Position numbers and translations under genes: made by a program. From Terrabacter aerolatus (GTDB lineage Bacteria > Actinomycetota > Actinomycetes > Actinomycetales > Dermatophilaceae): DNA of 64,000 nt. Position 1 is the stretch's first letter. The number at the start of each line of letters is the position of its first letter. The stretch covers positions 124,001 to 188,000 of the forward strand of contig NZ_BJYX01000005.1 in assembly GCF_007991735.1 (NCBI RefSeq). The letters run 5' to 3'. The notes under the pieces are model-generated. The model was not told the DNA's origin, did not search any database, and saw only the letters and a program-made list of their open reading frames with translations. Below are positions 1 to 64,000 of the stretch, piece after piece.

Positions 1-2379
1 GGCGTAGCCCGGCGAGCTCCACCGCGCGACCCAGCCGCCGTCGCGGTACTGCTGCACGAAGCCGTCGGCGATCTCGGCCGCCACCTCCGGGTAGAGCAGG
101 CTGTAGGCCGGCCACACGGTGCGGTAGGTGTCCCAGAAGCCGTTGTTGACGTAGATCTTGCCGTCCTTGACCGCGGCGTTGGTCGTCGTCGCGGTGGGCG
201 AACCGGCCTTGCCCGCCACAGGGCTCGCGTACTGGTAGTGCGGAGCCGTTGCCGTGCCGGTGTTCTCGAACTGGCTGTTGGGGTAGAGGTTGAGGCGGTA
301 GAGGTTCGAGTAGAGCGTCGTGCGCTCGGAGTCGTTGGCTCCCTTGACGCTGACGACGCCGAGACGGGCGTTCCAGGCGGCCTTGGCGGCCGCGCGCACG
401 GCGTCGAAGTCACGGCCCGCCAGCTCGAGGGCGTGGTTCTTCCTCGCCTGGTCGAGCGAGATGAACGACGTCGAGAGCTTGAGCGTGACCTGCTTGTCGG
501 CGCTCGTGTCGAAGGTCGCGTAGCGGGTGCCGGCGTGACCGTTCGGTGCGGTGCCGACCGCGGTGGCGGGTCGGTCGAAGGTGCCGTAGACGAACATCCG
601 GCTGCGGCCGGCGGACAGGCCGCTGCCGTTGTCGACCCAACCGGTCATGGTGCCGGTGGCCGGGTCGACGGTGAAGGTCCCGTTGTCGTCGATGGTGTCG
701 ACGACGAGGTGACCCTTGCTCGCGGACGCCGGAAAGGTGAAGCGGTAGACACCGCCGTGGTCGGCCGGTGCCGTCTCGGCCGTGAGACCGCCGGCGAGGG
801 AGACCTTGTAGTAGTCGGGGTGAGCCACCTCGGTCGCGTGGTCGAAGGCGAGCCCACGACCGGACGCGCTGCCCGTCGGGGTGCCCGTCGCGACGGACGG
901 CATCACCGACATCTGGTTGCGGTCACCCATCCAGGGGCTCGGCTCGTGGGAGATCGCGAGCCCTTGCAGCACCGGGAGGTTCGCTGCGTTGTTGGCGGAC
1001 TGGTAGTAGTACTCCCACGACTGCGAGTTGGCGTTCGTCACCGGCGTGAAGAACGTGAAGCCGTTGGGCAGCGCACTGATCGGGAGGTTGTTGCCGCGCG
1101 AGAAGCTGCCCGAGGCGTTGGTGCCGCGCCGCACGTCGACGTAGTTCGTCAGGTCCGCGCCGTCGACGGCCGCCGGACTCGCCTGCACCGAGACGTCGTC
1201 GATCCAGCCGCCGAACCGGGTGTCCTTCGTGGCCCCACCGGTGTTGTCGTAGCCGACGAGGACGCGGTCGATGGTCTTGCCCGCGGCGACCTTGCCGACG
1301 TCGACCGAGACGGCGTTCCACTGGTTGGCGTAGAGGATCTTGCCCTTGCCCTGGCCGCTCGGGCTCGCTGCGACGCCGTGCTGGTCGTCGGCGCCGAGGT
1401 CGGACAGGTAGGTGCCGTCCGTGAACCGGACGTCGAGAGCGGCATACGTCGAGGGGTACTTCAGGTCCCCGGCGACCATGTCGGGGAAGATCTTGTAGCT
1501 GAGGCGCGTCGTCGACGTGACCGGCAGGTCGACGTCGAAGAGCCGGTTCCACGCGTAGCCGCGACCGTCGGCCGTGTGGCCACCGGAGTAGCGCAGGGCC
1601 TTGACACCGGTCCAGCCGACGAGCGGCTTGATGTTGAAGCCGGAGATCGGGCCGGACCCGACGACCGTGCGCATCGGCGTCGCCGGGCCGGACCCGGTGC
1701 TGCCGTCCGAGAGGTCCCAGTCGGCGAGCTGGACGATGCCGCCGGAGTGGACGGCGGTCACGTTGAGCCGGTAGTACGCGTAGGTCGCCGGGGTCGTCAC
1801 GTCGAAGGTGCGCTTGGCGAAACGACCCGAGAAGTCGATGCCGGTCCGGCGGTCGAGGTCGGTCCACGTCGTGCCGTCGGTCGAGCCCTGCAGGGTGAAG
1901 TCCCTGGGGTCGCGCTCGGGTGAGTCGTTGGCCGACGTCAACGAGTAGCGCACGGCCTTGGCCGGGGTGCCGAGCTGGTAGCGCACCCATCCGCTCGAGG
2001 CGAAGGCGAGCCACTTGGTGTCGGGGTTGGCGTCGGCGAGGTTGGCCGCGACCTCGCCCGGGGTGTTCTCCGCGCTCGCCGTGACTCCGACGACCGAGCC
2101 GAGCAGGCTGCCGTCCGAGCTCGCGGTGCCCGAGACGTTCTGCTGGCGGGGCGCGCCGCCCGCGACCTCGACGGTCGAGAGCTGGGGCTGGGGCTGACCG
2201 GCCTCGAACGAGGTCGAGAAGTCACCCGCGCCGGCATCGGCTGCGGGCGCCGAGAGCGGCGCCGCGGCCGTGCTGCCGAGGGCTGTCGCGTGGGCGGGAC
2301 CGGCGACCGCGCCTGCGGTCGACGTGGCCAGGACTGCCAGGGCGATGACGCCTCTGTGGATCCCGGATCTCATGGACAT
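1..2379 (-). CDS. GH92 family alpha-mannosidase, secreted (partial, N-terminal part)
   Basis: The gene runs off the left edge; 793 codons of its N-terminal part are present. Residues 1-35 form a Sec signal peptide (basic start, Ala/Val/Leu core, ending near AHA), so the enzyme is exported. Residues about 85-210 look like an F5/8 type C (discoidin) carbohydrate-binding module (NLADANPDTKWLAF, then a Tyr/Trp-rich beta region). The GH92 part starts near residue 400 (YVDVRRGTNASG) and continues with LAISHEPSPWMGDRNQM and NGFWDTYRTVWPAY, all typical of this family. GH92 enzymes are calcium-dependent exo-mannosidases that trim alpha-mannosides from glycoproteins or mannans. The start ATG at 2379 follows GGAGG at 5-base spacing; ATG 2373 is an in-frame alternative. 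A LacI regulator is divergent and a mannose-6-phosphate isomerase follows it, which fits mannose release and use. The catalytic C-terminal half lies outside the window. Confidence 0.87.
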   Translation of the reverse strand, partial: MSMRSGIHRGVIALAVLATSTAGAVAGPAHATALGSTAAAPLSAPAADAGAGDFSTSFEAGQPQPQLSTVEVAGGAPRQQNVSGTASSDGSLLGSVVGVTASAENTPGEVAANLADANPDTKWLAFASSGWVRYQLGTPAKAVRYSLTSANDSPERDPRDFTLQGSTDGTTWTDLDRRTGIDFSGRFAKRTFDVTTPATYAYYRLNVTAVHSGGIVQLADWDLSDGSTGSGPATPMRTVVGSGPISGFNIKPLVGWTGVKALRYSGGHTADGRGYAWNRLFDVDLPVTSTTRLSYKIFPDMVAGDLKYPSTYAALDVRFTDGTYLSDLGADDQHGVAASPSGQGKGKILYANQWNAVSVDVGKVAAGKTIDRVLVGYDNTGGATKDTRFGGWIDDVSVQASPAAVDGADLTNYVDVRRGTNASGSFSRGNNLPISALPNGFTFFTPVTNANSQSWEYYYQSANNAANLPVLQGLAISHEPSPWMGDRNQMSVMPSVATGTPTGSASGRGLAFDHATEVAHPDYYKVSLAGGLTAETAPADHGGVYRFTFPASASKGHLVVDTIDDNGTFTVDPATGTMTGWVDNGSGLSAGRSRMFVYGTFDRPATAVGTAPNGHAGTRYATFDTSADKQVTLKLSTSFISLDQARKNHALELAGRDFDAVRAAAKAAWNARLGVVSVKGANDSERTTLYSNLYRLNLYPNSQFENTGTATAPHYQYASPVAGKAGSPTATTTNAAVKDGKIYVNNGFWDTYRTVWPAYSLLYPEVAAEIADGFVQQYRDGGWVARWSSPGYA

Positions 2380-2525
2380 GGGTGCCTCCGTGCTCGTCGT
2401 TGAGCCGTGCTGAAGTGAGCTGGTGCCGTGGGGTGAGCAGGTCGGTGCGAGCGACCCCCGAGCCGCGACCGACGTGGCGAGACTCGCCGCCGGGGACAAA
2501 CGGCGTCAACAGCCCGAACCGATCC

Positions 2526-2565
2526 TGTCCAGTCCGGACATCAGATCGGACAGAACGGGTCGTCC
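2526..2565. promoter_or_regulatory. Candidate LacI-family operator region
   Basis: This lies between the divergent mannosidase and LacI genes. The half-site CTGTCC/GGACAG recurs: CTGTCC at about 2526, an 8-bp palindrome GTCCGGAC at about 2533, and GGACAG near 2555, with a further GGACAG at about 2648. LacI-family operators are CG-centred palindromes, so the GTCCGGAC centre is a sensible candidate. The assignment is inference from position and symmetry only. Confidence 0.35.
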
Positions 2566-2608
2566 CGGTCGCTCTCGTGACCTCTCGCGTTGCACTCGCC
2601 AGCGCGCT

Positions 2609-2646
2609 GTGGTCAGACTGCGGGAATGACAGCGTTGTCTGACCAC
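2609..2646. repeat. Perfect 10-bp inverted repeat over the lacI-type gene start
   Basis: GTGGTCAGAC (2609-2618) and GTCTGACCAC (2637-2646) are exact inverted copies 18 bases apart. They bracket the ATG at 2626. The repeat could be an autoregulatory operator or, in RNA, a hairpin that occludes the start. If translation begins at ATG 2668 the repeat lies wholly in the leader. Confidence 0.6.
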
Positions 2647-3657
2647 CGGACAGCCGTGCGCCCGACCATGGCTGACGTCGCCGCCGAGGCCCACGTCTCG
2701 GTCAAGACCGTCTCGCGCGTGGTCAACCACGAGCCGGGCGTGCGCCCCGACACCGCGGAGCGCGTCCGAGCCGTCATCGAGCGCCTCGGCTTCCGCCGGC
2801 ACGACGGGGCCCGCCTCATGCGCCAGGGCCGCACCTTCACCATCGCCCTCGTCGTCGAGGACCTCGCCAACCCCTTCTACTCCCAGATCGGGGCGGCGGT
2901 CGAGCGCGAGGCCCGCATCCGGCAGCACCAGCTGATCACCGCGTCCGCCGAGGGGTCGCCGTCACGCGAGCGCGCCGTCATCGAGGCCCTGGTGGGCCGC
3001 CGCGTCGACGGCATCGTCGTCGTCCCCGCCGACGAGAGCGCCTCGTCCGACGCCGTCCTCGAGGCGAGCCACACCCCCATCGTCTACATGGACCGTCCGG
3101 TGCGCGGCACGCCCCGCGACACGGTGCTCAGCGACAACCAGGGCGGCATCCGGAGCGCGGTCGAGCACCTCGTCGCCCACGGTCACCGCAACATCGCCTT
3201 CTACGGCGACGACCCGGCGTTCTGGACGGCGCGGCAGCGCCGTGACGCGTTCGTCGCGACGCACGAGGGCCTCGGGCTCCCGAGCAGCCCCCGCGTCTCG
3301 ATGGGACCGCACACCGTCGGGTCCGTGCGGGAGACCCTGATCCCGTGGTCCGCCGGTCCGGAGCCGATCAGCGCGGTCATCACGGGCAACAACCGGATCA
3401 CCCTGGCCGTCCTGCTCGCCCTGCGCGAGCTGCGACTGCCCCTGTCGCTCGTCGGCTTCGACGACTTCGAGCTGGCCGCCCTCATCGACCCTCCCGTCAC
3501 CGTCGTGCACCAGGACCCGGCGGCCATGGGACAGAAGGCCGCCCAGCAGCTCTTCGCCCGCCTGCTCGGCGACGAGTCCCCGGCCCAGACCGTCGTCATG
3601 CCGACCCGGCTCATCGTCCGCGCCTCAGGCCTCCGGCGAGCTCCCCTGGGCCGTTGA
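2626..3657 (+). CDS. LacI family transcriptional regulator
   Basis: A 343-residue DNA-binding repressor of sugar use. The N-terminal HTH is canonical: TMADVAAEAHVSVKTVSRVV at residues about 14-34, followed by NHEPGVRPDTAERV and the hinge helix. The remainder is a periplasmic-binding-protein-like effector domain (IALVVEDLANPFYSQIG, VDGIVVVPA, VGFDDFELA, PTRLIVRASG). Length is normal for the family. The start is uncertain: ATG 2626 lies inside an inverted repeat and has only a weak ribosome site; ATG 2668 would begin directly at the HTH and may be the real start. The gene is divergent from the GH92 mannosidase and 80 bases upstream of the mannose-6-phosphate isomerase gene, so control of mannoside use is likely. 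The effector is unknown. Confidence 0.9.
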   Translation: MTALSDHRTAVRPTMADVAAEAHVSVKTVSRVVNHEPGVRPDTAERVRAVIERLGFRRHDGARLMRQGRTFTIALVVEDLANPFYSQIGAAVEREARIRQHQLITASAEGSPSRERAVIEALVGRRVDGIVVVPADESASSDAVLEASHTPIVYMDRPVRGTPRDTVLSDNQGGIRSAVEHLVAHGHRNIAFYGDDPAFWTARQRRDAFVATHEGLGLPSSPRVSMGPHTVGSVRETLIPWSAGPEPISAVITGNNRITLAVLLALRELRLPLSLVGFDDFELAALIDPPVTVVHQDPAAMGQKAAQQLFARLLGDESPAQTVVMPTRLIVRASGLRRAPLGR

Positions 3658-3737
3658 CGTCACCCCCGACCGCTTGCCCCTCCCCCAGCACCCCGAGCGC
3701 CGCACCTCTCCCGCACCCACCCAAGGAGCTCCCGCCC

Positions 3738-4799
3738 GTGTCAGAGACGACCGTGCCCGACGAGACCAGCCACGCCGCCCGTGTCATGAGCCGCCTGCCG
3801 CTCAACACCCCGCACCGCTTCTACCGCGGGGGCGAGCGCATCCTCGCCTTCCGCGGGCTGGAGGTTCCGCCGGACTTCGACGGGCACCGCCCGGAGGACT
3901 GGCTCGCGTCGACCACCCGGCTCTTCGCCGAGGGCGGCGACGGCGTCACCGTCCTCGACGACGGCACGCGGCTGCCCGATGCCCTCGCCGCCGACCCGGA
4001 GCACTGGCTCGGCGCCGCGCACCTCGCTGCCCACGGTGTCGAGCCGGGCCTGCTGACCAAGCTGCTCGACGCGGGCGAACGCCTGCCCGTGCACTCTCAC
4101 CCCGACCGCACCTTCGCGGCCGCCCACCTCGACTGCGCGCACGGCAAGACCGAGGCGTGGATCGTGCTCGATGCCGCACCCGGCGCGTGCGTCTGGCTCG
4201 GCTTCCGCGACGAGCTGCCGGCCGACGAGCTCGCAGATCTGGTGGAGGCCCAGGACCATCGGCTCCTCACGGCCCTCAACCGGATCGAGGTCTCCGCGGG
4301 CGACGCCCTGCTCGTGCCCGGCGGACAGCCCCACGCCATCGGTGAGGGCGTCTTCGTGCTCGAGCTGCAGGAGCCGACCGACCTGTCGGTCATGCTCGAG
4401 CACCGACGGTTCGGCCTCGAGCAGGCGCACGCCTTCCTCGGCCTGGACATCCCCCGTGCGCTCGAGAGCGTCGACCGTGGCCCCCTGACCGCCGAGGGAC
4501 TGACGGCCCTGCGCCGGCGGTGGACCGACGTCGGCGGCACCGGACACGCGCTGCCCGAGGATGCTGCGGAGTTCTTCCGCGCCGAGGTGCTGCGGGCGAG
4601 GCCCGACGCGCCCGCCACCGGTGCGGCGGCCTTCGCCGTCGCCGTCGTCGTCGAGGGCCACGGCACGTTGACGACGGGAACGGGCCCGCCCCGCACCACC
4701 GAGGTGGGGCGGGGCGACGTCCTGCTCGTGCCCCACGGCGCCGGCGACGTGCGCCTCGAGGGCGAGCTCACCGTCATCCGCTGTATGCCGTCGGCCTGA
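3738..4799 (+). CDS. manA: Mannose-6-phosphate isomerase, class I-like
   Basis: A 353-residue cupin enzyme that interconverts mannose 6-phosphate and fructose 6-phosphate in the cytoplasm. The zinc-site segment LPVHSHPDRTFAAAHLDCAHGKTEAWIVLD (residues about 118-147 here) contains the expected HSHPD and KTE..W residues. The second cupin face, LVPGGQPHAIGEGVFVLELQEPTD, follows. The start is GTG 3738, preceded by AAGGAG with 9-base spacing. The next in-frame ATG lies 17 codons further in and has no ribosome site. The gene probably shares a transcript with the LacI gene 80 bases upstream and would process mannose released by the GH92 enzyme. The C-terminal 100 residues are a variable cupin-like extension, so phosphosugar specificity could differ, but an isomerase role is well supported. 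Confidence 0.87.
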   Translation: MSETTVPDETSHAARVMSRLPLNTPHRFYRGGERILAFRGLEVPPDFDGHRPEDWLASTTRLFAEGGDGVTVLDDGTRLPDALAADPEHWLGAAHLAAHGVEPGLLTKLLDAGERLPVHSHPDRTFAAAHLDCAHGKTEAWIVLDAAPGACVWLGFRDELPADELADLVEAQDHRLLTALNRIEVSAGDALLVPGGQPHAIGEGVFVLELQEPTDLSVMLEHRRFGLEQAHAFLGLDIPRALESVDRGPLTAEGLTALRRRWTDVGGTGHALPEDAAEFFRAEVLRARPDAPATGAAAFAVAVVVEGHGTLTTGTGPPRTTEVGRGDVLLVPHGAGDVRLEGELTVIRCMPSA

Positions 4800-57877: not shown

Positions 57878-59050
57878 TCACATCCCGGCCGAGCGCAGGC
57901 CCGACTGCCACTCGATGAGGTCGCCGATCTTGGACGAGACCTGGTGTCCGTCGACGAGTCCGTTGGCCTTGCCGCGCGCCGTCTGCAGCGCGCGCAGGGC
58001 CGCGTTGCGGTCGCCGGCGTCGGCTGCCGCCTCGGCGGACGCGAGCCGCTCCTCGATCTGGGCCGCCAGCGTCCGGGTGCGGATCGAGCCGTTGTCGGAC
58101 GCGGCGAGCAGCCCCGAGACCTCGGAGAACGTCACACAGTCGCCGCCGCCACTCACCCTGCCGGCGGTCCACTCGATGCCGCCCTTGAGGTGCTCGAGGA
58201 AGTCCGGGTCGGAGTAGGAGGAGTCGACGTGACCGGCCCCCTCGTACCAGGACCGACCGCCCTCGACGTTCTGGCACCACGAGATCGGGTGGTCGGCGCC
58301 CATCCGGCCCCCGCTGTAGGTCGACTCGTCGAGCGTCAGCAGGACGCGAACGGACCCACGCGGGTTCGACGTGAAGTTGTACCACTCGTTTAACCGGACC
58401 CACGTCCGCGGCAGGTGCTCGGTCGAGGGGTGCGTCGGGTCCTCGACCCGCATCGTGGCCGTCTGCTGCGCCGGGTGGTTGACGAACCGGGCCCCGCCGC
58501 CCGAGAGCTTGCTGTACCAGGGCACCGTGTGCATGGTGTCGGTCGCCGCGTGCAACCCGACGTAGCCTCCTCCGCCGCGGATGTAGCCCTGGAACGCCGC
58601 GAGCTCCGAGTCGTCGAGCAGCCGGGGCGTCGACGGGTTCAGGCCGTTCGTGTTGTCGACCGGCGAGGCGAAGACGATCGTCGCGTACTTCGACAGGTTC
58701 TCGCTGCTCGTGAAGGGCGTGCTCGTCATGGTCAGGTCGGGCTGGCCCGGTGAGCCGGGTCCCCACCAGCCGCCGGAGCTGTTGGGCGGGTCCCAGACGT
58801 CGACGGTGAAGCCGCCCTGTCGGCCCAGGTCGATGATGGCGTGCGTCGTCTCGTCGATGTGGGAGTGGCGGAAGCCCAGCGTCTTGCCGACGACGAGCAC
58901 CTGGTACTGGTCGCCCGTGGGGGTCGCGCCGCCGCGTGTCGTGTCGGCGGCGCCGGCAGAGGCTGCGCCGGACCCGAGCACGAGCGCCGCGAGGCCCGTC
59001 AGGGTCCCGAGCAGTCGTCCCGGACCGACACGTCGTCGTGTCGCTGTCAT
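57878..59050 (-). CDS. Secreted ThuA-like protein
   Basis: A 390-residue exported protein. Residues 1-35 are a signal peptide (GPGRLLGTLTGLAALVLGSG, cleavage near ASA). Residues about 48-290 are a ThuA (trehalose-utilisation, class I GATase-like) domain: QVLVVGKTLGFRHSHIDETT, FQGYIRGGGGYVGLHAATDT, WVRLNEWYNFTSNPRGSVRV and HPISWCQNVEGGRSWYEGAG. The last 80 residues are helical (AAQIEERLASAEAAADAGDR), a common C-terminal add-on in secreted actinobacterial sugar-linked proteins. ThuA proteins bind or modify sugars, and secreted forms are often found with sugar isomerases, as here. The start ATG 59050 has GAGGAG upstream. Confidence 0.87.
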   Translation of the reverse strand: MTATRRRVGPGRLLGTLTGLAALVLGSGAASAGAADTTRGGATPTGDQYQVLVVGKTLGFRHSHIDETTHAIIDLGRQGGFTVDVWDPPNSSGGWWGPGSPGQPDLTMTSTPFTSSENLSKYATIVFASPVDNTNGLNPSTPRLLDDSELAAFQGYIRGGGGYVGLHAATDTMHTVPWYSKLSGGGARFVNHPAQQTATMRVEDPTHPSTEHLPRTWVRLNEWYNFTSNPRGSVRVLLTLDESTYSGGRMGADHPISWCQNVEGGRSWYEGAGHVDSSYSDPDFLEHLKGGIEWTAGRVSGGGDCVTFSEVSGLLAASDNGSIRTRTLAAQIEERLASAEAAADAGDRNAALRALQTARGKANGLVDGHQVSSKIGDLIEWQSGLRSAGM

Positions 59051-59151: not shown

Positions 59152-60162
59152 TCAGTCCTTGCTGCTGCTGAAGGCGGCGTCGAACGCCGCGTCCGGCTTG
59201 TCGAAGTTCAGGGCCCGAACGAACTCGAGCGCACCCGGGGCGCCGACGAGGCGGTCCATGCCCGCGTCCTCCCACTCGATGCTGATCGGGCCGTCGTAGC
59301 CGATGGCGTTGAGGGTGCGGAAGCAGTCCTCCCACGGCACGTCGCCGTGGCCGGTCGACACGAAGTCCCAGCCCCGGCGCGGGTCGCCCCACGGCAGGTG
59401 CGAGCCGAGACGACCGTTGCGGCCGTTGCCGATCCGCTTGCGGGTGTCCTTGCAGTCGACGTGGTAGATCCGGTCCTTGAAGTCCCAGATGAAGCCGGCG
59501 GGGTCGAGGTCCTGCCACACCATGTGGCTCGGGTCCCAGTTGAGGCCGAACGCCTCGCGGTGCCCGACGGCCTCGAGCGTCGCCACGGTGCTCCAGTAGT
59601 CGTAGGCGATCTCGCTCGGGTGCACCTCGTGGGCGAACCTCACCCCGACCTCGTCGAAGACGTCGAGGATCGGGTTCCAGCGGCGGGCGAAGTCGGCGTA
59701 GCCGGCCCGGATGACGTCGTCGCCCACCGGCGGGAACATCGCGACGTACTTCCAGATCGCGGAGCCCGTGAAGCCGATGACGGTGTCGACGCCGAGCTTC
59801 GCCGCCGCGCGGGCGGTGTCGGCCATCCGCTCGGCCGCGCGCTGGCGCACGCCTTCCGCGTCGCCGTCGCCCCACACGGACGCCGGCAGGATGTCCTGGT
59901 GCCGCTGGTCGATGGGGTCGTCGCAGACGGCCTGCCCGACGAGGTGGTTGGAGATCGCCCAGACCTCGAGCCCGTGCCGCTGGAGGATCTCGCGCCGCGA
60001 CTCGATGTAGCCGTCCTCGGTGAGGGCCCGGTCGACCTCGAAGTGGTCGCCCCAACACGCGATCTCGAGACCGTCGTAGCCCCACTCCCCCGCGAGGCGA
60101 CACACCTCCTCGAAGGGCAGGTCGGCCCACTGTCCGGTGAAGAGCGTGATCGGTCGTGCCAT
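59152..60162 (-). CDS. Sugar phosphate isomerase/epimerase (xylose isomerase-like TIM barrel)
   Basis: A 336-residue TIM-barrel enzyme. Features are [20 protein letters not shown] with [90 protein letters not shown] and [20 protein letters not shown] with ISIEWEDA. The metal-site Glu, Asp, His and Glu are all visible. Close relatives are annotated as sugar phosphate isomerase/epimerase acting on inositol- or sugar-like substrates. ATG 60162 is the start. It follows the ebo-type genes by 41 bases in the same direction and may be their last member; a hairpin follows its stop. Confidence 0.87.
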
Positions 60163-60203: not shown

Positions 60204-61607
60204 TCAGTGGGTCGGGGCAGCGGCGACGGCGATCCCAGCGGCCTCGAGCACGAGGTCGTGGACATCCGCTGCCGCCACCGTCTCACGCCGCAGGCTCGCG
60301 TCGGAGGCGATGACGACGGGGCCGTCCACGGGGTCGGCGGGCAGTCGTCCGTGGCTGCCACGCACCCACCGCGGGTCGAGCGGGACGACCTTCATCGCAT
60401 ACCGCAGGCCGAGCTTCTTGCGCACGAGACCGAGCCCGGCGCGCGCCTTCGCCGACCGGTCGGCGGGGTCGAAGAAGAGCTCGGCGGGGTCGTAGCCCGG
60501 CTTGCGGTGGATCTCCACGCCGCGCGCGAAGTCCGGCGCCCGCTCGTCGTCGAGCCAGTAGTAGTACGTGAACCACGCGCGCGGCTCGGCGACGAGGACG
60601 AGGTCACCACTGCGCTCGTGGTCGAGGCCGAGTTCCGCCTGGGCCGCTCGGTCGAGCACCTGGTCGACGCCGGGCGTCGCCTCGAGCAGGGTACGGACCT
60701 CGTCGAGCCGATCGGCGTCCCTGACGTAGACGTGCGCGACCTGGTGGTCGGCCACGGCGAAGGCCGTCGACGCCCACGGGTCGAGGTACTCCATCCTCGC
60801 CTGGGTGTGGACCTCGAGCAGGCCGGCCCGCCGCAGCACCCGGTTGACGTCGACGGGCTGGTCGACGGCCGTGATGCCGTACTCGCTGACGACGAGGACC
60901 CGGACACCGAGCCGCTCGGCGTCGTCGAGCAGTGGCGCCAGGGCGTCGTCGAGCTCGCGGGCGGCGGCCCGCGCCTCGGGCGACTCGGGGCCGAAGCGCT
61001 GCAGGTCGTAGTCGAGGTGCGGCACGTAGGACAGCGTCAGGTCGTGCTCGGGCAGCAGGATCCGGGTGGCCTCGATGATCCAGCGGGACGAGGCGATCGA
61101 CGCGGTCGGGCCCCAGTAGTGGAAGAGCGGGAAGTCCCCGAGCCGGTCGACGAGCCGGTCGTGCAGGGCCGCCGGACGGGTGTAGCAGTCGGGCGACTTG
61201 CGGCCGTCGGCGTGGTAGACCGGGCGCGGCGTGACGATCGAGTCGACGTCCATGCCCATGGCGTACCACCAGCAGACGTTCGCGACCCGAGCCCCGGGGT
61301 GCGCCCGGCGCAGGGCGTCCCACACCTTCTCGCCCTCGACGAGCGCGTTGTGCTGCCGCCACAGGAAGACCTCGCCGAGGTCGCGGAAGTACCAGCCGTT
61401 GCCGACGGCTCCGTGCTCGGCGACAGGGCGTCCGGTGAGCATCGTCGACTGCACCGAGCACGTGACGGCCGGCAGCACGGTCTCGAGCGAGGCCTGCCAG
61501 CCGGACCCGGCGAGCCGGGAGAGGCGCGGCATGTCCGCGAGGGCGCGTGGCGTCAGGCCGACGACGTCGAGGAGGAGGACCCTGTCGGGTGCTGTGGGCT
61601 GGTTCAT
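60204..61607 (-). CDS. Alkaline phosphatase/nucleotide pyrophosphatase family protein, EboF-like
   Basis: A 467-residue phosphodiesterase-type enzyme. The metal site and nucleophile are [19 protein letters not shown] and [20 protein letters not shown] (Thr/Ser nucleophile segment). Other ligands are [39 protein letters not shown] and [10 protein letters not shown]. This is the type I phosphodiesterase family (PF01663) as found in ebo clusters, where the member is named EboF. ATG 61607 overlaps the EboE stop by four bases. It probably hydrolyses a nucleotide-linked or phospho-polyol intermediate. No signal peptide is evident. Confidence 0.85.
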
Positions 61608-62803
61608 GCGGTCTCCTTGAGTCCGAGGTCGATGAGCGTGTCGCGCAGCCAGGCGAGCTCGCCGGCGATGCTGACCGCGAGGGCTGCGTCGTCGCTCGGG
61701 CGCACCGCCTCCGGGACGACCGTCCACGTGTAGGTCTCGACCTCGAGGTGGTCGGTGAGCGCGGCCTCCCCGCCGACGAGCACGTCGAGGGAGTGGCGAA
61801 GGTCGTCGGTCGTCGCCGCGAGAGGCGCCTCTGGCGCGTGGCCGAGCGGCACGTGGAAGTGGACCCGCCAGGGCTGCTCCGTGCCTCCCGGGCACGGGTC
61901 GAGGGGGCGTATGCCGTCGAGGGCGTCCCCGAGGTCGTCACGGGCGCGCAGCTGCCCGCCCTCACCCTGGTGGCCAGGCGAGCGGGTCTGGTGGAGGAAG
62001 CGCTTCTCGTCGAAGGCGGCGAGCGCGTCGCGGGTGGCGTCGTCGCCGGGGTGCTCGACGTGCAGCGCGGCGGAGACCTGCGCCTTGACGATGCGCCGGC
62101 CGGCCGACGTCAGCCGGGGCACGGCGACGGCGGCGTCCTCGAAACCGACGGCGAGGTGGCACAGGTCGAGGCACGTCCCGAGCACGTCCTCGTCCCGGCC
62201 CTCCATCCGTTCGACGAGGTCGGTCGTCGTCTCGATGACGCAGCCGGGCTCGGGCTCGAGCCCGACGCGGATCTCGCGGCCCGTGCGCTCCCGCTGGGTG
62301 TGCAGGTGGTCCGCCAGGCGGTCGAGCTGCTCGGTGGCGAGCACCTGCCGGTCACCGAACCAGGGGTGGCGCCAGCCGAGCGGGAGCGTCGAGATGCTGC
62401 CGCGGGCCGCGTCGTCCGGCAGCAGGCGGGCCAGCACCTCGATGAGGTCCGTCGTGTAGGCCAACCGGGCCGGCTCGGTCCAGTCGGGGTGGTAGACGCG
62501 GTGCTTGACCACCTTGTCCTGGAAGCCACGGTAGGGGAAGCCGTTGAGGGTGACGACCTCGAGGCCGCGGGCGTCGAGGGCTGCGCGGAGCCGGTCGGTC
62601 TCGCGCGGGTCGTCGGCGAGACCGCGGGCCACCGGGGCGCTGAGCCAGAGTCCCAGCCCGAGCAGGTCGGCGCCGAGGTGGTGGCGCACGGGCAGGGCGA
62701 AGCGGTCGAGCTGGCCGATGATCGTCTCGAGGTCCTCACCCGGGTGGACGTTGGTGCAGTACGCGACGTGGACGGTCTGCCCGTCGGCGTGGAGCAGTCG
62801 CAC
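61604..62803 (-). CDS. eboE: EboE-like metabolite traffic protein (xylose isomerase-like TIM barrel)
   Basis: A 399-residue TIM-barrel protein. Recognisable parts are VHVAYCTNVHPGEDLETIIG, LGLGLWLSAPVARGLADDPR, VVTLNGFPYRGFQDKVVKHR with VYHPDW, LGLEPEPGCVIETTTDLVE-type metal strand, and LCHLAVGFEDAAVAVPRL. TNVHPGE and LNGFPYG-type motifs are distinctive of EboE. It has an insertion with a polar loop (residues about 260-300). GTG 62803 starts just after the TatD gene's stop, with GGGAG upstream. EboE lies between EboB and EboF as in known ebo clusters; its reaction is unknown. Confidence 0.87.
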   Translation of the reverse strand: MRLLHADGQTVHVAYCTNVHPGEDLETIIGQLDRFALPVRHHLGADLLGLGLWLSAPVARGLADDPRETDRLRAALDARGLEVVTLNGFPYRGFQDKVVKHRVYHPDWTEPARLAYTTDLIEVLARLLPDDAARGSISTLPLGWRHPWFGDRQVLATEQLDRLADHLHTQRERTGREIRVGLEPEPGCVIETTTDLVERMEGRDEDVLGTCLDLCHLAVGFEDAAVAVPRLTSAGRRIVKAQVSAALHVEHPGDDATRDALAAFDEKRFLHQTRSPGHQGEGGQLRARDDLGDALDGIRPLDPCPGGTEQPWRVHFHVPLGHAPEAPLAATTDDLRHSLDVLVGGEAALTDHLEVETYTWTVVPEAVRPSDDAALAVSIAGELAWLRDTLIDLGLKETA

Positions 62804-62806
62804 GGC

Positions 62807-63694
62807 TCACTCCCTCGCGCCGCGGAGCACGGAGTTGCCCATGAAGGTGGCCCCTGCACCGACCAGCTCGTGGTCCTGGGCGCCCTCGGGCGCTTCGGTG
62901 TCGGGCAGCTCGAGGCGGCCGCTGCGGCCGTAGAACTCGACGGGGTTGCGCCACAGCACGCGGTCGACGTCGTCGGCGGTGTAGCCCGCGGCGAGCATCG
63001 TCTCGGCGACCCGGCGCGTCTTGAGCGGGTCACTGTTGCCCCAGTCGGCGGCGGAGTTGACGATCATCCGGTCGAGTCCGTAGCGCCGGAGGATCTCGAC
63101 CATGCGTCCCTCGTCCATCTTCGTGTCCGGGTAGACGGAGAAGCCCATCCAGCAGCCGGACTCGGCGACGACACCGACCGTCACCTCGTTGAGGTGGTCG
63201 ACGAGGACCGCCGACGGTTCGAGCGCCGACTCGCGCACGACGTCGAGCGTGCGGCGGGTCCCGGCGAGCTTGTCCCGGTGCGGCGTGTGCACGAGCGCGG
63301 GAAGCTCGTGCTCGGCGGCGAGCGCGAGCTGCGCGGCGAAGACGTCGTCCTCCTCCGGCGTCATCGAGTCGTAGCCGAGCTCACCGACGGCGACGACGCG
63401 GTCCTTGGCGAGGTAGCGGGGCAGCACGTCGAGCACCTCGCGGCAGCGGGCATCGTTGGCCTCCTTGGGATTGAGGCCGATCGTCGCGTGGTGCGCGATG
63501 CCGTACTGCGAGGCCCGGAACGGCTCCCACCCGAGCAGTGCGTCGAAGTAGTCCGTGAACGAGCCGACGCTCGTGCGTGGCTGCCCGAGCCAGAAGGAGG
63601 GCTCGACGACGGCGCGCACACCGGCGGCGTGCATCCGACGGTAGTCGTCGGTGGTGCGGGACGTCATGTGGATGTGGGGGTCGAAGATGCGCAC
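62807..63694 (-). CDS. TatD-like metal-dependent hydrolase, EboB-like
   Basis: A 295-residue amidohydrolase-fold protein. The first metal motif is FDPHIHMTSRTTDDYRRM (HxH). Others are VVAVGELGYDSMTPEEDDVF, LPALVHTPHRDKLAGTRRTL, AVLVDHLNEVTVGVVAESGC and IVNSAADWGNSDPLKTRRVA. In ebo clusters the TatD-type hydrolase is EboB, here directly upstream of EboE. GTG 63694 is preceded by GAGGAG. The EboA gene ends 9 bases before it, so the genes form one operon. The substrate is unknown. Confidence 0.86.
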   Translation of the reverse strand: MRIFDPHIHMTSRTTDDYRRMHAAGVRAVVEPSFWLGQPRTSVGSFTDYFDALLGWEPFRASQYGIAHHATIGLNPKEANDARCREVLDVLPRYLAKDRVVAVGELGYDSMTPEEDDVFAAQLALAAEHELPALVHTPHRDKLAGTRRTLDVVRESALEPSAVLVDHLNEVTVGVVAESGCWMGFSVYPDTKMDEGRMVEILRRYGLDRMIVNSAADWGNSDPLKTRRVAETMLAAGYTADDVDRVLWRNPVEFYGRSGRLELPDTEAPEGAQDHELVGAGATFMGNSVLRGARE

Positions 63695-63703
63695 GGCTGC
63701 TCC

Positions 63704-64000
63704 TCAGTGGGCTCGGTGGGGGCGGGTGTGGGGGTCTCGCCCCTCGGTGACGGCGAGGACGGTGCGAGCGTCCGGGGGCACCACCCGTCCGGCGGCCTCC
63801 CGCTCGGCGGCGTAGTCGCGCACCATCCGGGCGAGCTCGTCGTCGGCGCGGTCGGCGAGGCCGGCGACCTGCTCGACCGGGACTCCGGTGAAGAGCACCT
63901 TGAGCACGGCCTGACGCCACGTGTCGTCGTCGAGGTGGGTGGCGGCATACGGCCCGACGGCTGCTGCGACGAGGCGGGTGTCGTTGGTGCGCAGGGCGTC
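63704..64000 (-). CDS. eboA: EboA domain protein (partial, C-terminal part)
   Basis: Only the last 98 codons are in the window; the start lies beyond the right edge. The segment RTNDTRLVAAAVGPYAATHL, DDDTWRQAVLKVLFTG and VPVEQVAGLADRADDELARM is the characteristic end of EboA, an all-helical protein of unknown activity that marks ebo clusters. The tail is polar (GRDPHTRPHRAH). It lies 9 bases upstream of the EboB-like gene in the same direction. The cluster presumably continues to the right with EboC/EboD-type genes (UbiA-like prenyltransferase, inositol-phosphate or dehydroquinate synthase), which cannot be checked here. Confidence 0.85.
   Translation of the reverse strand, partial: DALRTNDTRLVAAAVGPYAATHLDDDTWRQAVLKVLFTGVPVEQVAGLADRADDELARMVRDYAAEREAAGRVVPPDARTVLAVTEGRDPHTRPHRAH

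What the first reader, a model, noticed from the sequence alone, without database searches (positions are those of the whole stretch)
60204..64000. ebo-type gene cluster in an actinobacterium
EboA (partial), a TatD-type EboB, EboE and an EboF-like phosphodiesterase follow in the same order with 4-9-base overlaps or gaps. Ebo genes are known from cyanobacteria (scytonemin-linked), algal plastids and various bacteria, where they are thought to handle or export a small-molecule precursor. No core biosynthetic gene is within the window, so the metabolite here is unknown. The following sugar isomerase and ThuA-like secreted protein may belong to the same pathway.
Basis: partly seen in the sequence, partly recalled or inferred. 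Interest (0 to 1): 0.62.

Follow-up and report, generated by a model that had tools for sequence, protein, structure and literature searches.

The report
Ebo operon with an inositol-phosphate synthase
This actinobacterial gene cluster is a real relative of the bacterial "ebo" operon, thought to move small molecules across the membrane, but its usual ring-forming enzyme is replaced by a relative of the enzyme that makes inositol, and the same replacement appears to have happened in at least one other bacterial phylum, which hints at what the unknown ebo product contains.

Summary
In detail: EboA (cut by the window end), EboB, EboE and EboF lie at 60204-64000, minus strand, tightly packed. Reading right in the same genome completes a seven-gene unit, MIPS-EboC-TIM2-EboA-EboB-EboE-EboF. 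A UbiA prenyltransferase is there. The cyclase EboD is not; a myo-inositol-1-phosphate synthase homologue (MIPS) leads the unit, beside a housekeeping Ino1 on another contig. In 90 actinobacterial ebo clusters MIPS is found in 84, EboD in none; in 70 clusters from elsewhere EboD in 64, MIPS in one (Gemmatirosa); none of these loci has both. MIPS keeps four catalytic lysines in 92 of 92 sequences. Trees of EboF, EboB and EboC, though not of EboE, reject a single origin of the actinobacterial and Gemmatimonadota MIPS types, so the cyclase was probably exchanged at least twice. Three haloarchaeal plasmids carry a reduced MIPS version. I read this as displacement of EboD by MIPS plus a partner TIM barrel, which supports the published, unproven idea that ebo builds a prenylated cyclitol, here probably inositol-derived. 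No product or activity is shown. The held papers that I searched do not describe this variant.

The parts
63704..64000 (-). EboA, 3' part; whole gene = L008:1704-2309 (-), L008 being G000:C5:186001-206000
   Evidence: NF035938 124 bits for the part, 169 bits whole. AlphaFold model of a homologue (L182): all-helical, mean pLDDT 95.7
62807..63694 (-). EboB, TatD-like hydrolase homologue
   Evidence: PF01026 57 bits; H7, H9, E105, H136, H167, D217, putative metal ligands (roles recalled), conserved in MIPS and EboD types
61604..62803 (-). EboE, xylose-isomerase-like TIM barrel
   Evidence: NF035939 418 bits over cut-off 250; E183, D213, H216, E356 conserved in both types
60204..61607 (-). EboF, type I phosphodiesterase / alkaline-phosphatase-like
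   Evidence: PF01663 212 bits; T49 aligns with a Thr that reads Ala in solved entry 3t02; SEYG where phosphonoacetate hydrolase has ADHG
59152..60162 (-). TIM3, IolE-like TIM barrel, accessory
   Evidence: PF01261 143 bits; this type found in 38 of 84 MIPS-type loci
57878..59050 (-). ThuA-domain protein with a signal-like N-terminus (by eye), accessory
   Evidence: PF06283 207 bits; this type found in 17 of 84 loci

Best explanation
The cluster is a MIPS-type ebo operon. SHOWN BY SEQUENCE: a tightly packed unit MIPS-EboC-TIM2-EboA-EboB-EboE-EboF in which EboD, the sugar-phosphate cyclase of classical ebo operons, is absent, and a second myo-inositol-1-phosphate synthase homologue with intact catalytic lysines stands in the unit with a partner TIM barrel (TIM2). 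INFERRED: MIPS cyclises glucose 6-phosphate to an inositol phosphate, TIM2 (perhaps with dehydrogenases nearby) isomerises or tailors it, and the UbiA-type EboC joins a prenyl chain to it. EboB, EboE and EboF trim or hydrolyse intermediates, EboA is a helical scaffold, and the resulting prenyl-cyclitol serves as a membrane carrier or membrane-bound intermediate that helps a small molecule reach the outside, where secreted-looking enzymes (GSDH protein, Tat-motif TIM barrel, ThuA) may act. That EboD and MIPS+TIM2 alternate in different ebo backbones suggests that the two cyclases fill the same step.
For: Gene content. Survey: 84 MIPS / 0 EboD / 6 neither in 90 actinobacterial clusters; 64 EboD / 1 MIPS / 5 neither in 70 others; none with both. 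Four further loci from outside the class but in the phylum carry the whole unit. TIM2 in 80 of 84 MIPS-type and 0 of 64 EboD-type loci. MIPS and EboC adjacent in 80 of 83 loci measured, median spacing -4 nt. The four lysines invariant in 92 of 92; best solved relative A. fulgidus Ino1, 219 bits, against 52 for 1gr0, the M. tuberculosis enzyme (organism recalled). Separate housekeeping Ino1 at C27, 717 bits; the only EboD-like gene found in the genome is a 119-bit hit on contig 20, presumably AroB. One clade of MIPS types rejected: EboF p 0.0003, EboB p 4e-7, EboC p 0.0095. EboC, EboE and EboF of an EboD-type Gemmatimonadota contig are 61-75% identical to those of MIPS-type Gemmatirosa. MIPS and a TIM2-like gene also sit near each other outside ebo. 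A cyclitol-isoprenoid product and a cyclitol-lipid carrier were proposed for ebo on other grounds (PMC5133447, PMC6282210, passages).
Against: I know of no activity, metabolite or mutant for this variant. The EboE tree does not reject one origin (p 0.136). One Gemmatimonadota MAG (G664) has both types, on different contigs, so they are not exclusive per genome. Four of 84 MIPS-type loci lack a TIM2 hit, two lack EboC, and one (L103) holds only a 52-bit MIPS remnant. Locus L246 (G648) has broken EboC and EboE frames and neither a MIPS nor an EboD hit. One EboD-type cluster (Ketogulonicigenium) also has a neighbouring isomerase/epimerase barrel. MIPS keeps the phosphate and uses a C6 sugar, whereas EboD is posited to act on a C7 sugar and to lose the phosphate (PMC5133447, passages), so the products need not be equal. 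An EboC homologue farnesylates 8-hydroxyquinoline-2-carboxylic acid in vitro (PMC9235831, passages), an aromatic rather than a cyclitol. The three haloarchaeal versions show no EboE or EboA.
Confidence: 0.6

Rival explanations
1. MIPS and TIM2 do not replace EboD. They belong to a sugar or inositol uptake and oxidation pathway that is co-transcribed with ebo, and the ebo genes work without any cyclase.
For: The upstream neighbours are a monosaccharide-type ABC transporter, a Gfo/Idh/MocA dehydrogenase, a Tat-motif TIM barrel and a GSDH protein. Some classical clusters also sit beside sugar genes.
Against: MIPS is a biosynthetic enzyme family and the genome has another Ino1. MIPS directly precedes EboC with a median -4 nt spacing, and its presence is complementary to EboD across 160 clusters, whereas a Gfo gene like the window's neighbour is found in only 9 of 84 loci. 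The transporter was not counted.
Confidence: 0.2
2. MIPS and EboD supply different cyclitols, and the two cluster types make different end products with a shared export or tailoring logic.
For: C6 versus presumed C7 cyclase. The window's EboC is over the cut-off for NF045897 (343 bits) and under it for classical EboC (120 bits). Several positions in EboE, EboB and EboF differ consistently between types.
Against: In Gemmatimonadota related EboC, EboE and EboF proteins go with either cyclase.
Confidence: 0.4
3. The block is a housekeeping cluster for inositol lipids or mycothiol, and the ebo resemblance is loose family similarity.
For: MIPS supplies inositol for mycothiol and phosphatidylinositol in actinobacteria (recalled).
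Against: Specific EboA and EboE models are passed with wide margin; a separate housekeeping Ino1 is over its cut-off; EboE is patchy, in 98 of 394 genomes of the class.
Confidence: 0.04

Closest known systems
ebo operon eboA-F (eustigmatophyte plastids, Bacteroidetes, Cyanobacteria and others; PMC5133447)
   Same: EboA, EboB, EboE, EboF and a UbiA-type EboC, co-directional and clustered
   Different: No EboD; MIPS and an extra TIM barrel (TIM2) in the unit; different gene order. That paper mentions actinobacterial EboA fused to a xylose-isomerase-like domain, not MIPS
Nostoc punctiforme ebo cluster, scytonemin monomer export (PMC6282210)
   Same: Same Ebo proteins; on one Streptomyces plasmid a ScyD/ScyE-family gene stands next to MIPS (L142)
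   Different: Cyclase differs; cargo here unknown; scytonemin core genes were not looked for
EDB cluster of Pseudomonas fluorescens NZI7 (through PMC6282210 and the review PMC9655573, passages)
   Same: Contains ebo genes
   Different: Has an EboD homologue according to PMC6282210; indole products according to the review. The original papers were not seen
SCO3242/SCO3243 of Streptomyces coelicolor, counted in the CDA cluster (PMC3610822, passages)
   Same: Annotated 'putative transferase' and 'myo-inositol phosphate synthase'; SCO3242 names the NCBIfam family that the window's EboC passes
   Different: Not linked to ebo in the passages seen; I did not read the S. coelicolor DNA
Archaeoglobus fulgidus Ino1 (1u1i; organism recalled)
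   Same: Closest solved relative of the cluster MIPS, catalytic lysines kept
   Different: Gene context; activity of the cluster enzyme untested
UbiA-297 prenyltransferase (PMC9235831)
   Same: EboC-type UbiA enzyme in ebo clusters
   Different: From marine Flavobacteria; farnesylates quinolines in vitro. The paper lists an EboD (3-dehydroquinate synthase-like) gene in the cluster

Membership tests
classical six-gene ebo operon | EboA | tested here: met
   NF035938 169 bits over cut-off 50; the narrower NF035937 is below its cut-off, 74 of 320
classical six-gene ebo operon | EboB, TatD-like | tested here: met
   PF01026 57 bits over 27; conserved with EboD-type EboB
classical six-gene ebo operon | EboC by its own NCBIfam model | tested here: not met
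   NF035940 120 bits under cut-off 250; the model NF045897 (SCO3242 family) is met, 343 over 260
classical six-gene ebo operon | EboD sugar-phosphate cyclase | tested here: not met
   Absent from the locus; only a 119-bit hit on another contig; no hit in the stretches read of 90 of 90 actinobacterial ebo clusters, three of which end at a contig end
classical six-gene ebo operon | EboE | tested here: met
   NF035939 418 bits over 250
classical six-gene ebo operon | EboF lineage of PF01663 | tested here: met
   PF01663 212 bits; Thr49 and the SEYG motif shared with EboD-type EboF
classical six-gene ebo operon | Genes form one conserved co-directional unit | tested here: met
   Order MCTABEF in 75 of 84 loci; the window's own locus was cut before EboF in that count. 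Spacing
classical six-gene ebo operon | Role in metabolite export | not testable with these tools
   Needs mutants and metabolite localisation
myo-inositol-1-phosphate synthase | Pfam pair PF07994 and PF01658 | tested here: met
   161 and 109 bits
myo-inositol-1-phosphate synthase | Catalytic lysines | tested here: met
   K264, K268, K296, K357 in 92 of 92. K268 and K357 align with lysines that read Ala in solved entries 3qvw and 3qvx; the catalytic roles are recalled
mycothiol-type housekeeping Ino1 (TIGR03450) | Score over cut-off 638 | tested here: not met
   47.5 bits
myo-inositol-1-phosphate synthase | Cyclisation of glucose 6-phosphate | not testable with these tools
   Needs enzyme assay

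The most novel reading that the evidence does not exclude
The ebo pathway makes a prenylated cyclitol lipid, and nature has shown which step is the cyclitol step by swapping unrelated cyclases into it: EboD in most phyla seen; MIPS with TIM2 in Actinomycetota, independently in Gemmatimonadota, and in haloarchaea. In these lineages the head group is inositol-derived, giving a new class of prenyl-inositol membrane carrier found in Bacteria and Archaea.
Probability: 0.35. Interest if true: 0.82.

Novelty: new variant of a known kind. Interest (0 to 1): 0.66.

Why it matters
The chemistry of ebo is an open question: each of the five Nostoc genes deleted is needed for export of a precursor (PMC6282210, passages), yet the papers seen propose rather than prove what the enzymes make. 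Replacement of the proposed cyclitol-forming enzyme by an unrelated cyclitol-forming enzyme is independent comparative evidence that a cyclitol is made, and inositol labelling gives a direct handle that EboD-type organisms lack. It also suggests that SCO3242/SCO3243 of the model organism S. coelicolor belong to an ebo unit rather than to CDA synthesis.

Tried and rejected
I first took the cluster MIPS as the only one in the genome, because PF07994 found one copy. TIGR03450 then found a housekeeping Ino1, so that reading was dropped. I also thought that EboC subfamily tracks the cyclase, because the first EboC tree needed a single change. With Gemmatimonadota and haloarchaeal rows added it needs three, with Gemmatimonadota alone two, so it was dropped. 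Classical ebo clusters in Actinomycetes: five full-length EboE hits stand without other ebo genes; the four whose surroundings I listed lie among transporter and dehydrogenase-like genes. G664 as a single cluster holding both cyclases: rejected, because its two EboC pieces differ (54% identical over 59 residues) and the contigs share no long match. EboA fold: the model is confident, but Foldseek gave no match at E 0.001 or better; VIA-align gives Z up to 9.3 to HEAT/ARM-like repeats, within the middling range for helical models, so no relationship is claimed. Of 64 plasmid records with a MIPS match I read the surroundings of six beyond Gemmatirosa and Streptomyces; three are ebo-like (haloarchaea), two have MIPS with TIM2 and Gfo genes, one (Halomarina L255) has MIPS among glycosyltransferase and Gfo genes without other ebo genes.

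The counts depend on score limits (EboE over 100, EboD over 100, MIPS over 50 bits, and at least two other core genes). The trees with AU tests used random subsets of the loci (41, 39, 39 and 40 rows); haloarchaeal rows and the long-branched L179 and L154 were left out of all, L173 of EboC and EboE, and the split EboE of L261; the Gemmatimonadota MIPS type is two rows, one for EboE. The classes were named after earlier trees had been seen, which weakens the p values.
Full report
OBSERVATION. The window is G000:C5:124001-188000. Spacing is gap 9, gap 3 and overlap 4.

THE UNIT COMPLETED. Twenty kilobases to the right were fetched (L008; ORFs of the first 14 kb; L008 position p is window position p + 62000). 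In the direction of transcription come an ABC sugar transporter, a Gfo/Idh/MocA dehydrogenase, a TIM barrel with a twin-arginine motif (by eye), a GSDH/PKD protein with a signal-like N-terminus (by eye), and then MIPS (L008:4077-5222), EboC (3184-4080), TIM2 (2306-3187) and EboA (1704-2309), followed by the window genes. From MIPS to EboA neighbouring genes overlap by 4 bases each, so MIPS to EboF looks like one translationally coupled unit. EboC passes the SCO3242 family model (343 bits) and not the EboC model (120 bits, cut-off 250). There is no EboD. A search of the genome with Deinococcus EboD finds only a 119-bit hit on another contig, presumably AroB.

TWO MIPS GENES. The cluster enzyme scores 47 bits against the mycothiol Ino1 model (cut-off 638), whereas another contig has a true housekeeping Ino1 at 717 bits. 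The cluster copy is nearest among solved structures to 1u1i, A. fulgidus Ino1 (219 bits; 1gr0, M. tuberculosis, 52; organisms recalled). Lys264, Lys268, Lys296 and Lys357 match the four catalytic lysines (roles recalled) and are invariant in 92 of 92 ebo-linked sequences aligned, those with stops or under 300 residues left out.

SURVEY. EboE was found in 98 of 394 genomes of the class, in 90 over the cut-off; the seven other genomes of the window's own family that are listed there have none. The 94 over-cut-off places were all read with their surroundings (own genome included), plus 6 of the 15 truncated EboE-like hits and one Streptomyces plasmid, and annotated with phmmer. Of these 101 loci, 90 are ebo clusters: 84 with MIPS, 0 with EboD, 6 with neither; 11 have EboE only. 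Of the 6, three end at or near a contig end and their genomes have a MIPS on another contig (G309, G075, G217), two are second clusters in genomes whose other cluster has MIPS (G057, G301), and one (G028) has a MIPS of another subgroup elsewhere. One of the 84 (L103) holds only a MIPS remnant. Outside the class, 84 loci were annotated (80 from one scan, 4 from plasmids): 70 ebo clusters, 64 with EboD, 1 with MIPS, 5 with neither, and 14 EboE-only loci, 5 of these with EboD. No locus in this count has both. Outside the class but in the phylum, the four loci over the EboC (NF045897) cut-off all have the full unit; a fifth, below the cut-off (G648), has broken EboC and EboE frames and no MIPS or EboD hit. 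TIM2 is in 80 of 84 MIPS-type and 0 of 64 EboD-type loci; EboC and EboF in 82 of 84 each, EboA and EboB in 84.

INDEPENDENT EXCHANGES. In Gemmatimonadota, 3 of 249 genomes have EboE. All three have MIPS-type genes: G744 (its contig has the length of Gemmatirosa plasmid 2 and the same genes), G735, and G664 contig 223, which holds MIPS, TIM2 and an end of EboC; G664 has in addition an EboD-type contig. Gemmatirosa EboB joins those of Herpetosiphon and Deinococcus, whose clusters have EboD and EboG. The MIPS types of the two phyla as one clade are rejected for EboF (p 0.0003), EboB (p 4e-7) and EboC (p 0.0095), but not for EboE (p 0.136). Three of four haloarchaeal plasmid loci read have EboB, two TIM barrels, EboC, MIPS and EboF, without an EboE or EboA hit; the fourth has no other ebo gene. 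The MIPS tree keeps the actinobacterial set as one group (99/99) but, without a root, cannot say how often MIPS was recruited.

WHAT IT DOES. Shown: gene content, order, complementary presence, and conservation of likely active-site residues, including putative metal ligands of EboB, EboE and TIM2 and the NDxxDxxxD motif of EboC. EboF keeps the Thr that aligns with the one mutated in 3t02 but has SEYG where phosphonoacetate hydrolase has ADHG, so its metal site looks unusual in the types compared. Inferred: a cyclitol is made by MIPS or EboD, prenylated by EboC, and used for metabolite traffic. The cyclitol-isoprenoid idea is from PMC5133447 (passages, and section 12 whole) and the carrier model from PMC6282210 (passages). 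The quinoline prenylation by an EboC homologue (PMC9235831, passages) is a caution. A GSDH-type protein is in 53 of 84 MIPS-type loci and 1 of 64 EboD-type loci, but this was scored with the window's own and the Salipiger protein only, and the one EboD-type locus is Salipiger itself.

LITERATURE. Searches listed no paper that I could see to describe MIPS in an ebo cluster. Of the 12 papers that name the ebo cluster or operon, I checked three for 'inositol' (PMC5133447, PMC6282210, PMC9796282: none in the main text), and PMC9235831, also among the 12, has none either; the other eight were seen as listings only. Only open-licence papers are held, so this is a limited negative. NCBI's models and gene names (SCO3242 family; inositol-3-phosphate synthase in the same run as EboA and EboE on a plasmid record) show that annotators have the pieces.

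Noticed in passing
L253 (Methylobacterium bullatum), L254 (Hymenobacter volaticus), L247 (G028): MIPS with a TIM2-like barrel and Gfo/Idh matches outside ebo, in L254 also with an HD-domain gene and a YcaO gene; looks like another cyclitol pathway that uses the same enzyme pair.
   Followed up: partly
L069, L071, L085, L090, L135; also L185 and L213: Full-length EboE homologues without other ebo genes; in the four inspected (L069, L071, L085, L090) the neighbours look like transporter and dehydrogenase genes, so the EboE model name does not always mean metabolite traffic.
   Followed up: partly
L095-L099, L138: A shorter EboE-like family (matches positions 1-242 of 379), without other ebo genes, in genomes of family code f24.
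   Followed up: no
L246 (G648): An ebo cluster from elsewhere in the phylum with broken EboC and EboE reading frames and no MIPS hit.
   Followed up: no
L103 (G191): MIPS remnant of 52 bits beside an otherwise normal ebo unit; a better MIPS match lies on another contig.
   Followed up: partly
window 60204-61607 and relatives: EboF has SEYG in place of the ADHG metal motif of its solved relatives, conserved across the types compared.
   Followed up: partly
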